Source: an uncultured Coriobacteriaceae bacterium
GTDB taxonomy: Bacteria; Actinomycetota; Coriobacteriia; Coriobacteriales; Atopobiaceae
NCBI GenBank assembly: GCA_902795065.1
Contig: CADBJR010000002.1
Coordinates: 1-64,000, forward strand
Direction of reading: 5' to 3'
DNA: 64,000 bases
The notes under the pieces: model-generated
What the model was told of the DNA's origin: nothing
Seen by the model: the letters and a program-made list of their open reading frames with translations, nothing else
The model's database searches: none
Translations under genes and position numbers: made by a program
In this document: positions 29,201-33,826 of the stretch, in pieces
Layout: the number at the start of each line of letters is the position of its first letter
How positions within the stretch are numbered: the stretch's first letter is position 1

Positions 29201-30597
29201 AAACCGCTGCCACCGATCTTGTCCTGTACGCCCTGTCCTGCGGCCTCATCGAGGAGACCGACCTCAACTGGGCCTATAACCGCGTGCTCGAGTGCATCGG
29301 CGCTCCCGGCCCGCTCGAGGTTTTCTCCGAGCTCGATGGCCCCTCCGCAGATTTCGAGCAGCCGCTCTACGAGCTTGTCGAGGCCGGCGTTGCCAACGGC
29401 ATGGTCGAGGACACCCTCGGCGGCCGAGACCGTCTGGCCATGCGCATCATGGGCGTCCTCACGCCGCGACCCTCCGAGGTGGCCTCCATCTTCTGGGCGC
29501 TCTACGAGGAGGAGGGTCCCAAGGCCGCGACCGACTACCTCTACCAGCTCTCCTGCGACGTGGACTACGTGCGCGTCTCGGCCATCGCGAAGAACCTCGG
29601 CTGGAACGCCGAGACGCCGTGGGGCGCGCTCGAGATCACGATCAACAAGTCCAAGCCCGAGAAGGACCCGCGCGATATCGCCGCCGCGGGCAAGGCGGCC
29701 GTGGGGGAGAAGTACCCCGCGTGCCAGCTCTGCGTGCAGAACGAGGGCTATGCGGGCCGCGGTGCCGCGCATGCCATGGGCGAGCATCCCGCGCGCCAGA
29801 ACCTGCGCATCGTGCCCATCCAGCTCAACGACGAGCGCTGGGGCCTGCAGTACAGCCCCTACGCGTACTTCACCGAGCACTGCATCGCCATGAGCGTCGA
29901 GCACCGCCCCATGCACATCGACCGTTCGGCGTTCACCTGCCTGCTCGACTTCGTGGACCTCTTTCCGCACTACTTCATCGGCTCCAACGCCGACCTGCCC
30001 ATCGTGGGCGGCTCGATCCTCTCGCACGACCACTTCCAGGGCGGCTTCCACGAGTTTCCCATGATGCGCGCCGAGAAGGTCGCGTCGTTCAATATGGCGG
30101 GTTTCCCGCACATCGAGGGCTTCGTCGTCAAGTGGCCGCTCTCGGTTCTCCAGCTCGAGAGCACGGACCGCGAGGAGCTGCTCGAGGCCGCCTGCCACGT
30201 GCTCGATGCCTGGCGCGCTTGGAGCGACGAGAGCGTGGGCGTCTACGCGTTCACAGGCGAGACCCCGCACAACACCATCACGCCCATCTGCCGCAAGCTC
30301 GGCGACCGCTACGTCATGGCGCTCGCGCTGCGCTGCAACATCACGAGCGATGAGAACCCGCTCGGCGTGTTCCACCCGCATGCCGACAAGTGGCATGTCA
30401 AGAAGGAGAACATCGGACTCATCGAGGTCATGGGCATGGCCATCCTGCCGCCGCGCCTCGAGGCCGAGATGGAGGCCGGACGTCTTTCGCAGGAGGAGAT
30501 CGGCCGCGTGTTCGGCGCCGTTCTGGAGGATGCCGGCGTCTTCAAGTGGGACGATGCCGGCCGCGCCGCGCAGATGAGGTTCGTCGGGAGTTTGTAA
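29191..30597 (+). CDS. galT: UDP-glucose-hexose-1-phosphate uridylyltransferase, Gram-positive type
   Basis: A 468-residue GalT of the Firmicutes-type family (GalT2), which is longer than and barely similar to E. coli GalT. The active-site region is ILSHDHFQGGFHEFPM near residue 276, and QLCVQNEGYAGR and FTGETPHNTITPICR are further family blocks. It exchanges UMP between UDP-glucose and galactose-1-phosphate. galE is not in the window. Its last 19 codons are the start of a long direct repeat whose second copy is at 33490. Confidence 0.93.
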   Translation: MAVETAATDLVLYALSCGLIEETDLNWAYNRVLECIGAPGPLEVFSELDGPSADFEQPLYELVEAGVANGMVEDTLGGRDRLAMRIMGVLTPRPSEVASIFWALYEEEGPKAATDYLYQLSCDVDYVRVSAIAKNLGWNAETPWGALEITINKSKPEKDPRDIAAAGKAAVGEKYPACQLCVQNEGYAGRGAAHAMGEHPARQNLRIVPIQLNDERWGLQYSPYAYFTEHCIAMSVEHRPMHIDRSAFTCLLDFVDLFPHYFIGSNADLPIVGGSILSHDHFQGGFHEFPMMRAEKVASFNMAGFPHIEGFVVKWPLSVLQLESTDREELLEAACHVLDAWRAWSDESVGVYAFTGETPHNTITPICRKLGDRYVMALALRCNITSDENPLGVFHPHADKWHVKKENIGLIEVMGMAILPPRLEAEMEAGRLSQEEIGRVFGAVLEDAGVFKWDDAGRAAQMRFVGSL

Positions 30598-30658
30598 GGG
30601 CTTTACCCTGGCTCGTCTCGTATGCCCGCCCCTTGGGGGCATGTCATATCGGTCGTAA

Positions 30659-30700
30659 GTTGAGACTGGTAACACAGGTACCTGTGCAATCAGCCTCAAC
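30659..30700. repeat. 42-base imperfect palindrome A1
   Basis: Begins GTTGAGACTGGTAACACAGG and ends CAGCCTCAAC. Member of a four-copy family; a few mismatches in the right arm. Confidence 0.85.
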
Positions 30701-30776
30701 GTTATGATGGACGTCTCAATTTGACAAAGCCGCTGGTAGAAGGCATGTGCTATGTGCTGAACACCCCATTTGCGCG

Positions 30777-30818
30777 GTTGAGACTGTTTATACAGGCACC
30801 TGTGCAACCAGTCTCAAC
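30777..30818. repeat. 42-base imperfect palindrome A2
   Basis: Begins GTTGAGACTG and ends CAACCAGTCTCAAC, with the same central CAGG-CACCTG core. It lies 118 bases after A1, the same distance as between B1 and B2. Confidence 0.85.
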
Positions 30819-30933
30819 TTACGATAATGCCGATATGGCCATTGGTCGCCCCTATACTCCATGCCTATTCTACGAATCGTGGAGTGCAGTTTTCTACATG
30901 AGTGGATTACCGTAGCACTAAGACTTCTAATTA

Positions 30934-30980
30934 ACGGATCTCAATACTAAGGAGGTGAGAGGGAAACGGTGGAGATCCGT
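30934..30980 (+). promoter_or_regulatory. Leader inverted repeat around a perfect Shine-Dalgarno
   Basis: ACGGATCTC (30934-30942) and GAGATCCGT (30972-30980) can pair as a 9-base stem. The enclosed loop holds AAGGAGGTGA, a ten-base match to the anti-Shine-Dalgarno end of 16S rRNA. Pairing would partly hide this site, which suggests translational control. Confidence 0.4.
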
Positions 30981-31019
30981 ATCGAGCTGTCGCTTGTTAT
31001 TAACGGAGGTATCTCATGA
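30969..31019 (+). CDS. Possible 16-residue leader peptide
   Basis: A GTG at 30969 opens a 16-codon frame (MEIRIELSLVINGGIS) that ends with TGA overlapping the ATG of the secreted-protein gene (ATGA). GAGGG lies five bases upstream and the strong AAGGAGGTGA a little further. The overlap and ribosome sites suggest translational coupling, but such a short frame could be fortuitous. Confidence 0.3.
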   Translation: MEIRIELSLVINGGIS

Positions 31020-31768
31020 GATATTCAGCTGATATCCGTAAACCTCTATTGAACTTTGTACCCATTCTTCTTCTTCTTTTGCTTGCCCTATTTCCGACCG
31101 CTGCTTTGGCTGCTTCTGCGACTAGTACTCCAAAAACTGTGACGTTAAATGGTCACTCTTATTCGTACTATACAAAGGTCGCGACTGAATCTGGCAATGC
31201 GTACGCATGGACATACGCAAACGCAACGAACGGATCTGTCCCAACTGGATATATGGGAGCGAACTCGACTCTCTATAAGGAGGGCATCATTCCAACTGCG
31301 GTTGCATCCCGTGATTGGGCTTACAATACTTCAACCTCATCAAGCCATACTCGTGGATGCGGAATGACAGCCTCGTCAGGCAATTACTATGCCGCTGGAC
31401 AAGTCAGATTCTATAACGGATCCGGATACAATACGTATACGGCAAACCGGTCTCCCAGCTTAACGTATTCTGGGGCTCTTGCTGCGTATCAAAGCCAGCA
31501 ATTCTCGGGTTTATGGGCTGTTTCCGATGATTTCTACCAAGGTCGGCAGGATCTCATCCTTGCTGAAGGTGTGAATGGTGGGGTTGGTTATATCAGATAC
31601 GAAGACCTTGGTTTTGACTACACACCGTCCACCCCGGAAGAGGCGGTTGCATATACGCTGTCACAGCCTGATGTGCGCTATATTCCCGTCTACGATAAGG
31701 ATGGAGTTACTGTAATTGATGAATATCCTGTATTTGGTGGAGACTCAAGTTGGGATGCCTTTTTCTAG
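31016..31768 (+). CDS. Secreted protein with a C-terminal domain shared with the downstream membrane regulator
   Basis: A 250-residue exported protein. Residues 1-32 form a Sec signal peptide (basic start, poly-Leu core, cleavage after ALA). Residues 35-165 are rich in Ser, Thr, Tyr, Asn and Gly (SVPTGYMGANSTLY, YYAAGQVRFYNGSGYNTY), with one Cys (TRGCGM), and look like an extracellular beta domain. Residues 179-242 (DLILAEGVNGGVGYI ... STPEEAVAY ... IPVYDKDGVTVIDEY) align at about half identity with residues 427-489 of the next gene. Base composition is clearly more AT-rich than the flanking genes, suggesting transfer. GGAGG precedes the ATG. I do not recognise a named family; toxin, bacteriocin-like or signal roles are open. 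Confidence 0.75.
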   Translation: MRYSADIRKPLLNFVPILLLLLLALFPTAALAASATSTPKTVTLNGHSYSYYTKVATESGNAYAWTYANATNGSVPTGYMGANSTLYKEGIIPTAVASRDWAYNTSTSSSHTRGCGMTASSGNYYAAGQVRFYNGSGYNTYTANRSPSLTYSGALAAYQSQQFSGLWAVSDDFYQGRQDLILAEGVNGGVGYIRYEDLGFDYTPSTPEEAVAYTLSQPDVRYIPVYDKDGVTVIDEYPVFGGDSSWDAFF

Positions 31769-31955
31769 GACGAGCATTATTGGGAGCAATAGATAGCGGC
31801 CATTAAGCTTGCCTATATGCGGCAATCACCATACAAACGGCAACGCTTCAGCTGTGAACCAACAGAGTCTTGCAATTGCCGTTGAAATACCAACTATTCG
31901 GAGCTGTGTATAGACAGTACATATGACTGTTGCCTGATCTTTTGGGAGGTGCGAC

Positions 31956-33425
31956 ATGGACGCGGTAAAAACGGGCCGCTTTATTGCAGAACTCAGACAT
32001 GAGCGCGGGCTTACGCAGCAACAGCTTGCTGAAAGGCTGTACGTATCCTTCAAAGCTGTCTCGCGTTGGGAGACGGGTCGCGGTACGCCTGATCTCGACA
32101 ACCTCGAAGCGCTCTCCCGCGAGCTCGAGGTGAGTGTTGTCGAGCTTCTAAATGGAGAAAGAATCGAAGAACCTGTCACTTTAACAGATGCTGAGATTCT
32201 TTCTCGAGATGTTGTCTCGGTTATGAGGGGGCATCTGAAGCAGAGCATCACAAGAAGTGCCGTATTCGGTTTGATTGCAGGAATGATCTCCATAGCGCTT
32301 GTTGCCGTATGGCTCACCAGCTCGAATGCCATACCCTTTTACGAGGGGCTTGTCGAGGTTGAGAATTCCGAAAGCGGGATTCTGCTTGCTTCGTTCGACG
32401 AGAGTGTAACGGGCTTCGAGATCGACTACGAAACGGATTCCAACACTGGAGAAGTGATTGCATATATCAGCTGTTACTCGAAGATTTGGGACACGATTAC
32501 CGGTACAACAGACCTTGGGTGGCATGCACCGGACGTGCGGCCAACGTTGGCGATAGGCTCAAAGGATACCGTTGCGAGCGTTTACTACTATCCAGGATAT
32601 GTTCAGGAGAAGACCGCCCCGTTCGATTCGCGTACGGGGTGGTATGTCAATGCGCTCCTCTATGCTCGCGATGGCTCGGATGCATTTCTTTCGATCGTGC
32701 AGCCCAGGCGGGTATATGACCGTCTTATCGTCGGTTCGGCAGCTGTAGGCGGAGTCATGCTTGTTCTGTTCCTCTTGCTTCGCAAGCGAAGGCTCGCGTA
32801 CCTTCTCCTCATGGGTACGTTGCTCCCTCTCTGCCTTGCCTTGAGCATCGTTATCGTCCTTTGGGGAAAACTGGATCAGGTCTTCAACGCCTCCTTCTAC
32901 TTCAGCGAAATCGCCCTCCTTACACTGGTACTCTTCTTCTGCACGTACGTGATTGCTGCCCGCGTGATCTATGGTAAGGAAGCAGAGGGCTTGCCGGCAG
33001 GGCTCCTTGCTCGGCAGTTGGGGATCCTGGTATGCACGGCAAGTGCTTTGGTTGCGGTTGCATGCGCTGCCTGCATAGCATATGCGCGTTGGGGCGAAGG
33101 ATTCCGGAGCAGGACGGTTCTTGTTCCAACACCTGAATATGTTCTTGAGCAGGGGTATCCTCTTAACGCATCGGGCCAGACATATGGTCCTGGCGGCCTG
33201 AGCGATTCCAACGGCGAGATGATCAAGGAGCCAGATCTTGTGCTGGCACAGGGGGAAGATGGGGCTATAGGGTATCTGAGCCTTTACGATACGGACTATT
33301 ATTATGTCCCCTCTAGTCCCGAAGAGGCGGTTACCTATACGGAGTCGAAACCAAGCGAGGAGTACGTTCCCCTCTATGACAGGGATGGGAAAACCGTAAT
33401 TGGGACGTTTCGGATCGGCGGATAG
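31956..33425 (+). CDS. XRE-family HTH membrane protein with extracellular C-terminal domain
   Basis: A 489-residue protein. An XRE/Cro-type helix-turn-helix occupies residues 8-62 (LTQQQLAERLYVSFKAVSRWETGRGTPDLDNLEAL). Predicted membrane helices are at about 101-122, 257-276, 280-302, 314-338 and 355-377, with an external loop 123-256. With five helices the C-terminus is outside. Residues 427-489 (DLVLAQGEDGAIGYL ... SSPEEAVTY ... VPLYDRDGKTVIGTF) match the C-terminus of the secreted protein encoded upstream. The gene is probably a membrane-tethered regulator sensing an outside signal. The inverted paralogue at 33827 lacks the fifth helix and this domain. GGGAGGTG precedes the ATG. Confidence 0.8.
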   Translation: MDAVKTGRFIAELRHERGLTQQQLAERLYVSFKAVSRWETGRGTPDLDNLEALSRELEVSVVELLNGERIEEPVTLTDAEILSRDVVSVMRGHLKQSITRSAVFGLIAGMISIALVAVWLTSSNAIPFYEGLVEVENSESGILLASFDESVTGFEIDYETDSNTGEVIAYISCYSKIWDTITGTTDLGWHAPDVRPTLAIGSKDTVASVYYYPGYVQEKTAPFDSRTGWYVNALLYARDGSDAFLSIVQPRRVYDRLIVGSAAVGGVMLVLFLLLRKRRLAYLLLMGTLLPLCLALSIVIVLWGKLDQVFNASFYFSEIALLTLVLFFCTYVIAARVIYGKEAEGLPAGLLARQLGILVCTASALVAVACAACIAYARWGEGFRSRTVLVPTPEYVLEQGYPLNASGQTYGPGGLSDSNGEMIKEPDLVLAQGEDGAIGYLSLYDTDYYYVPSSPEEAVTYTESKPSEEYVPLYDRDGKTVIGTFRIGG

Positions 33426-33489
33426 GGCGATCCTGCCTTCTCGTCATCGCGGGCATTGCTCCACCAATGCGATCACGGATATCCCAAGC

Positions 33490-33549
33490 GTCTTCAAGTG
33501 GGACGAGGCGGGCCGCGCTGCCCAGATGAGTTTCGTCGAGAGCCTGTAA
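33490..33549 (+). pseudogene. Duplicated galT 3' fragment (last 19 codons)
   Basis: Reads VFKWDEAGRAAQMSFVESL then stop, against VFKWDDAGRAAQMRFVGSL at the end of galT. No upstream galT sequence is present. It is the left end of repeat copy B and has no coding role. Confidence 0.85.
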
Positions 33550-33611
33550 GGGGGTCGCCCGCTTCTACCTCGTATGTCCGCCCCTTTGGGGCATGCCGTA
33601 ACAGACGTCGA

Positions 33612-33653
33612 ATTGAGACTGGTAGCACAGGCACCCGTGCTACCAGTCTCAAC
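33612..33653. repeat. 42-base palindrome B1
   Basis: TTGAGACTGGTAGCAC pairs perfectly with GTGCTACCAGTCTCAA across a short core. Confidence 0.9.
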
Positions 33654-33729
33654 GTTATGATGGACGTCTCAATTTGACAAAGCCGCTGGTAGAAGGCATG
33701 CCCTATGTGCTGAGCACCCCATTTGCGCG

Positions 33730-33771
33730 GTTGAGACTGTTTATACAGGTACCTGTGTTACCAGTCTCAAC
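33730..33771. repeat. 42-base palindrome B2
   Basis: Begins GTTGAGACTG and ends TTACCAGTCTCAAC around the core CAGGTACCTG; partly mismatched left arm (TTTATA). Confidence 0.85.
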
Positions 33772-33826
33772 TTACGGCAAATGCCGATATGGTCATTGAC
33801 CGCCCTTACACTCCATGCCCACTTCT

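What the first reader, a model, noticed from the sequence alone, without database searches (positions are those of the whole stretch)
31016..33425. Secreted protein and XRE membrane regulator share an extracellular C-terminal domain
Residues 179-242 of the secreted protein and 427-489 of the downstream XRE-HTH, five-helix protein align at about half identity (common core: D-L-x-L-A, G-x-x-G-x-x-G-Y, P-S-x-P-E-E-A-V-x-Y-T, Y-x-P-x-Y-D-x-D-G-x-T-V-I). Topology prediction puts the DNA-binding domain inside and the shared domain outside. A secreted ligand carrying the same module as the membrane repressor suggests a sensing, competition or immunity pair: the free domain may compete with or dimerise with the membrane one. 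The pair is AT-rich and lies between direct repeats. I know of no described system with this design.
Basis: partly seen in the sequence, partly recalled or inferred. Interest (0 to 1): 0.75.

Follow-up and report, generated by a model that had tools for sequence, protein, structure and literature searches.

The report
Secreted protein paired with membrane regulator
A bacterium carries a small inserted cassette in which a secreted protein and a membrane-bound gene switch share the same outside domain; related pairs occur in other Gram-positive bacteria, so this looks like an undescribed family of sense-and-respond (or attack-and-protect) modules rather than a one-off coincidence.

Summary
P0001 residues 179-241 and P0002 residues 427-489 are 49% identical over 63 aligned positions (E 2e-17). 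P0002 is predicted HTH-in, five helices, C-terminus out. The shared domain matches nothing in Pfam, NCBIfam, PHROGs or the PDB, by sequence or predicted fold.

The pairing is conserved. The secreted protein has its own N-terminal domain, also undescribed. In a 398-genome class sample all 14 hits to that domain lie within 400 bp of a shared-domain hit; all evaluable phylum hits and plasmids of Alkalihalophilus, Paenibacillus and C. difficile agree. The anchored partner varies: lipoprotein, single helix, XRE, double LuxR, or BlaI-linked M56. In several genomes the secreted partner lacks the shared domain.

An 18-bp near-palindrome occurs, in three same-genus genomes, almost only upstream of these XRE genes or of the cassettes, including 129 nt before P0001. 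So an XRE of this family probably controls the secreted gene.

Best reading: the shared domain is a portable receptor for the secreted partner or its wall target, placed here on a transcription factor. Precedents for the design exist (RsgI6/Xyn10D, BlaR1/class D beta-lactamases). The free-domain competition idea is untested and not favoured. Binding, regulation sign and toxicity are unknown.

The parts
31016..31768 (+). P0001, secreted protein, 250 aa (signal peptide, N-terminal beta-rich domain, C-terminal shared domain)
31142..31465 (+). Secreted N-terminal domain of P0001 (residues 43-150), homologous to stand-alone secreted proteins elsewhere
   Evidence: profile of four stand-alone proteins from other lineages hits P0001 43-150, E 1e-13 at Z=1000; one search places it at 31136-31465
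31541..31744 (+). Shared domain in P0001 (residues 176-243), lacking the first ~30 residues of the full domain
31956..33425 (+). P0002, XRE-HTH protein with five predicted helices and extracellular C-terminal shared domain, 489 aa
   Evidence: Pfam HTH_3 2.8e-14; topology
31983..32147 (+). XRE helix-turn-helix of P0002 (residues 10-64)
   Evidence: 67-72% identical over residues 1-75 to four XREs of the genus
33126..33422 (+). Shared domain in P0002 (residues 391-489)
   Evidence: AF2 model mean pLDDT 75.6
30869..30886 (+). Candidate operator TCTACGAATCGTGGAGTG, 129 nt before the P0001 start codon
34819..34836 (-). Candidate operator TCCACGAAGCATAGGGTG, 59 nt before the P0003 start codon; the only other match in the whole genome
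33827..34759 (-). P0003, XRE-HTH plus four-helix paralogue of P0002 without the fifth helix and shared domain, 310 aa
   Evidence: 45% identity to P0002 over residues 1-308, E 2.6e-59
30536..30865 (.). Left direct repeat: 3' end of galT plus intergenic hairpins
33488..33819 (.). Right direct repeat of the same stretch (86% identical)

Best explanation
The two genes form an acquired, self-regulating cassette built from two undescribed extracellular domains that occur together across Gram-positive bacteria. P0001 is exported and carries a beta-rich N-terminal domain (the likely effector) plus a partial copy of the shared domain. P0002 is a transmembrane XRE regulator whose outside shared domain acts as the receptor for the secreted partner, and whose XRE domain acts on the operator in front of P0001, giving feedback on production or response. 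It arose when a membrane-anchored shared-domain protein, the usual partner of the secreted protein elsewhere, was joined to a P0003-like XRE plus four-helix regulator. Shown by sequence: both domains, conserved neighbourhood, insertion, paralogy with P0003, an operator motif found almost only at these promoters. Inferred: that the shared domain binds the secreted N-domain, that P0002 and/or P0003 bind the operator, the sign of regulation, and that the secreted protein acts on other cells.
For: Every secreted N-domain hit in 398 class genomes (14 hits, 12 genomes) lies within 400 bp of a shared-domain hit, and all 12 genomes are among the 27 with the shared domain (hypergeometric 6e-16, not corrected for kinship). 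In the phylum sample four of four evaluable new hits agree; the fifth (G685) runs off its contig. The same neighbours occur on plasmids of A. pseudofirmus, P. polymyxa, P. cellulosilyticus and C. difficile. The two domains are fused in one Streptomyces plasmid protein. The shared domain sits on unrelated transducers next to a secreted shared-domain protein: XRE in the window and in G002, double LuxR-HTH in G113, BlaI-linked M56 in C. difficile. The pattern TCYACGNANCRTRGRGTG has two exact matches in the whole own genome (upstream of P0001 and of P0003), one in G001 (upstream of its XRE) and two in G002 (upstream of its galT-side XRE and of its cassette), with backward controls 0, 0 and 1 at up to one mismatch. 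The only one-mismatch match away from these sites lies inside another gene. HTH regions of all five XREs are alike. P0002 groups with G002 lipoprotein copies of the domain (93/90) and its residues 1-308 match P0003.
Against: No binding, expression or phenotype data. No AF2 complex could be run; the P0001 model is poor (mean pLDDT 45) and the shared-domain model matches no solved fold. In 15 of the 27 class genomes no N-domain was detected, though some of these (G055, G113, G167) have an adjacent secreted shared-domain protein whose N-part is too diverged for the profile. No operator copy lies in the 187 nt before P0002, so P0002 would have to be co-transcribed with P0001 or use another promoter. 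An XRE protein from the viral-contig collection carries the shared domain next to a PASTA domain with no secreted partner seen nearby, which hints at a cell-wall ligand instead.
Confidence: 0.45

Rival explanations
1. RsgI- or BlaR1-like design: the shared domain binds a third-party extracellular ligand (cell-wall fragment, polysaccharide, antibiotic). P0001 uses it to dock on its target and P0002 uses it to sense the same ligand and switch P0001 on.
For: Known precedents: RsgI6 sensor 57% identical to secreted Xyn10D (PMC4711584); BlaR1 sensor homologous to class D beta-lactamases (PMC5957439). The shared domain occurs on a BlaI-linked M56 protein in C. difficile and beside a PASTA domain on an XRE protein.
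Against: In several lineages the secreted partner carries no shared domain, so a common ligand-docking module does not explain the strict pairing. No ligand-binding fold was recognised.
Confidence: 0.3
2. Secreted toxin or bacteriocin with a membrane-anchored immunity protein: the anchored shared domain neutralises the secreted N-domain at the surface; in the window genus the immunity part was joined to an XRE regulator, so immunity and sensing are one protein (compare SdpC/SdpI/SdpR).
For: Sporadic distribution (27 of 398 class genomes), plasmid carriage, an insertion with an empty site in two sister genomes, a decayed extra copy in G002, constant co-location with an anchored partner.
Against: No toxin family match in Pfam, NCBIfam, PHROGs or PADLOC; no killing data; many of the secreted proteins themselves carry the supposed immunity domain.
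Confidence: 0.15
3. One reading: the free shared domain of P0001 competes with, or dimerises with, the P0002 domain.
For: 49% identity of the two copies and conserved neighbourhood.
Against: The conserved partner of the anchored domain is the N-terminal domain, which often stands alone. In the window genus the two copies belong to separate groups of the tree rather than being sisters (win_SEC with G002_SEC 99/94; win_XRE with G002 XRE and lipoproteins 93/90). The secreted copy is truncated.
Confidence: 0.08

Closest known systems
RsgI anti-sigma factors of Clostridium thermocellum (RsgI6-GH10 and secreted Xyn10D)
   Same: Membrane regulator with an extracellular C-terminal module homologous to a module of a secreted protein (PMC4711584)
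   Different: RsgI is an anti-sigma factor, not an HTH protein; its module binds polysaccharide; no sequence relation was found to the domains here
BlaR1/MecR1 - BlaI
   Same: Extracellular C-terminal sensor homologous to secreted enzymes; in C. difficile pJMR5-4 a BlaI-linked M56 protein carries the shared domain
   Different: The window protein has no M56 protease; DNA-binding and sensing parts are on one chain; no match of the shared domain to a penicillin-binding domain was found
BcrR and other transmembrane transcription regulators (PMC10269533)
   Same: XRE-type HTH fused to membrane helices acting as a one-component membrane regulator (BcrR architecture from memory; class described in PMC10269533)
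   Different: BcrR senses bacitracin and, from memory, has no large extracellular C-terminal domain; no secreted partner with a homologous domain
SdpC/SdpI/SdpR of Bacillus subtilis
   Same: A secreted protein sensed by a membrane protein that controls a repressor; a model for how it might work (own knowledge)
   Different: No sequence relation tested or expected; three proteins, no shared domain

Membership tests
Transmembrane transcription regulators (one-component, PMC10269533) | Recognisable DNA-binding domain | tested here: met
   HTH_3 2.8e-14
Transmembrane transcription regulators (one-component, PMC10269533) | Transmembrane helix or helices on the same chain | tested here: met
   five hydrophobic segments, hydropathy only
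Transmembrane transcription regulators (one-component, PMC10269533) | Acts on transcription from the membrane | not testable with these tools
   only a candidate operator
RsgI-type anti-sigma factors | Cytoplasmic anti-sigma-I domain with a cognate sigma-I gene | tested here: not met
   N-terminus is an XRE HTH; the neighbours read are galT and a second XRE
BlaR1/MecR1 sensors | M56 metalloprotease domain | tested here: not met
   no PF05569 match in P0002, present in the C. difficile relative
Known bacteriocin or toxin families | Match of the secreted protein to a described family | tested here: not met
   none in Pfam, NCBIfam, PHROGs, PADLOC
The secreted/anchored pair family defined here | Secreted N-domain and shared domain encoded within a few hundred bp of each other | tested here: met
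   the window itself

The most novel reading that the evidence does not exclude
The shared domain is a portable receptor for one family of secreted effector proteins found across Actinomycetota and Bacillota. It was used first as a membrane-anchored partner (immunity or tether) and then moved repeatedly onto different gene switches (XRE, LuxR, BlaI/M56), so that bacteria turn the presence of this secreted protein into a transcriptional response.
Probability: 0.35. Interest if true: 0.8.

Novelty: new variant of a known kind. Interest (0 to 1): 0.62.

Why it matters
It defines two domain families with no match in the databases searched and a conserved gene pair in Gram-positive bacteria, including plasmids of C. 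difficile and Paenibacillus. If the shared domain recognises the secreted partner, it would be a ready-made example of one extracellular recognition module being plugged onto several unrelated gene switches. It also gives a testable operator and a natural comparison, because the paralogue P0003 has the same DNA-binding and four-helix part without the outside domain.

Tried and rejected
Viral-contig scans gave the XRE-PASTA protein on two near-identical contigs and nothing with a secreted partner. No phage record matched. AF2 of P0001 failed for lack of usable alignment depth; fold searches of the shared-domain model gave nothing. A permuted SH3-like fold was considered because of the GYVxxxDL motif but no structural match supports it. 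PDB profile searches gave only chance matches to ribosomal L20 and CirpA5. Rejected: chance similarity, recent duplication within the window, prophage gene (no phage genes adjacent; no phage match). The 30925-31030 leader RNA fold is not better than shuffles (z 0.31). Text searches for the sequence motif, for M56/BlaI extracellular-domain papers and for shared-domain immunity papers found nothing relevant.

Full report
OBSERVATION. P0001 (31016-31768) and P0002 (31956-33425) share a C-terminal stretch: P0001 179-241 and P0002 427-489 are 31/63 identical without gaps, E 2e-17, far above shuffles. P0002 has an XRE HTH and five hydrophobic segments that put the shared domain outside; P0001 has a signal-peptide-like start. 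The stretch is lower in GC than most of the window and lies between direct repeats that hold the 3' end of galT and hairpin-rich intergenic DNA. The P0001 copy lacks the first ~30 residues of the full domain.

WHAT THE DOMAINS ARE. The shared domain (consensus YPxNxxGxTYG...PDLIxAxGxxGxxGYVxxxDL...PEEA...IPVYDxDGxTVIGxF) has no match in Pfam, NCBIfam, PHROGs or PDB sequences and its AF2 model (mean pLDDT 75.6) has no structural match. P0001 also has a second domain, residues 43-150, found by a profile built only from stand-alone secreted proteins of other lineages (E 1e-13 at Z=1000); it too is undescribed.

THE PAIR IS CONSERVED. In the same genus, G002 has lipoprotein + decayed secreted gene + XRE + secreted gene on one contig. 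In the family, G055 has lipoprotein + secreted protein, and G113 a double LuxR-HTH + helix + shared domain next to a secreted protein with the domain. In 398 class genomes the secreted N-domain was found 14 times in 12 genomes; all 12 are among the 27 genomes with the shared domain and every hit is within 400 bp of one. In the phylum sample G431 (twice), G445 and G459 agree; G685 ends at a contig edge. On plasmids: A. pseudofirmus and P. polymyxa have an anchored domain followed by a secreted protein with both domains; P. cellulosilyticus has a secreted protein with the N-domain only, followed by the anchored domain; C. difficile pJMR5-4 has BlaI, an M56 protein with the shared domain and, across the record start, the secreted protein; a Streptomyces plasmid has both domains in one chain. 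The genomes are not independent, so the hypergeometric value (6e-16) overstates the strength; the repeated pattern across phyla is the better argument.

ORIGIN. P0003, on the other strand just beyond the right repeat, is 45% identical to P0002 1-308 but stops after helix four. In G001 and G002 galT faces a P0003-like gene with nothing between them, so the pair and the repeat were probably added in the window's lineage. The tree places the P0002 domain with G002 XRE and lipoprotein copies (93/90) and the P0001 domain with the G002 secreted copy (99/94), so they are not a recent local duplication; in C. difficile, by contrast, the two copies are sisters (98/97) (many branches are weak). P0002 therefore looks like a P0003-type regulator joined to an anchored shared-domain protein (inference).

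REGULATION. Comparing promoters turned up an 18-bp near-palindrome. The pattern TCYACGNANCRTRGRGTG with up to one mismatch has only two matches in the whole own genome, both exact: 129 nt before P0001 and 59 nt before P0003. G001 has one, 45 nt before its XRE. G002 has two exact ones, 117 nt before its galT-side XRE and 106 nt before the likely start of its cassette; its other one-mismatch matches are the opposite strand of that cassette site and a place inside an unrelated gene. The pattern was derived from four of these sites, so those matches are not independent; that they are nearly the only ones in about 7 Mb, and that the exact 18-mer of the P0001 site recurs at the G002 cassette, is the evidence. 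The HTH regions of the other four XREs are 67-72% identical to that of P0002, so P0002, P0003 or both could bind. No copy precedes P0002.

HOW IT MOST LIKELY WORKS. Because the secreted N-domain, wherever it could be evaluated, is next to a shared domain, while the secreted protein may or may not carry a shared domain itself, the conserved relation is N-domain with shared domain. The simplest mechanism is that the anchored shared domain recognises the secreted partner; in the window it is mounted on a transcription factor that controls the secreted gene. The main rival is that both bind a third ligand such as cell wall, as the PASTA-linked relative suggests. Toxin-immunity is possible but has no direct evidence.

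NOVELTY. The design (a membrane regulator whose outside domain is homologous to a secreted protein) has precedents (PMC4711584, PMC5957439), and transmembrane one-component regulators are a known class (PMC10269533). New here are the two domain families, their constant association, the presence of the shared domain on XRE, LuxR and BlaI/M56 transducers, and the operator link. Hence 'new variant of a known kind'.

Noticed in passing
window 30969-31019 (+): A possible 16-codon leader ORF (GTG start, VEIRIELSLVINGGIS) ends in TGA overlapping the P0001 ATG (ATGA), with AAGGAGG 13 nt before it; could couple translation of P0001. Conservation was not tested.
   Followed up: partly
window 30654-30700, 30777-30824, 33613-33653, 33730-33776: Four copies of a 41-48 nt imperfect palindrome (GTTGAGACTG...CAGTCTCAAC), two per direct repeat in inverted orientation; they fold into hairpins (z -4.4 to -7.8) and in this genome were found only at this locus. 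Looks like a REPIN- or MITE-like element or paired terminators.
   Followed up: partly
window 30536-30600 and 33488-33552: The last ~65 nt of galT are duplicated 2952 bp downstream, so the cassette could be lost by recombination between the repeats; two sister genomes have the empty site.
   Followed up: yes
L010 2721-2948 (G002 contig C68): A decayed second copy of the secreted gene (TGA and TAA in frame) lies between a shared-domain lipoprotein and the XRE gene.
   Followed up: partly
L088 2572-3516 (viral contig collection): XRE-HTH + one helix + shared domain + PASTA domain (PF03793 4.7e-15), no secreted partner nearby; neighbours look like an AbiEi/AbiEii-type pair (by eye, not tested).
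   Followed up: partly
L149, L150, L156 (G306, G172, G331): Secreted shared-domain proteins lie beside ECF sigma-factor genes (Pfam confirmed in G306 and G331) and membrane proteins that look like anti-sigma factors, a further regulator type linked to this domain.
   Followed up: partly
L084 2914-5500 (Rhodococcus aetherivorans plasmid): A secreted shared-domain protein lies between a NucA/NucB deoxyribonuclease gene and a DUF6924 protein, a neighbourhood that could suit a secreted effector.
   Followed up: no
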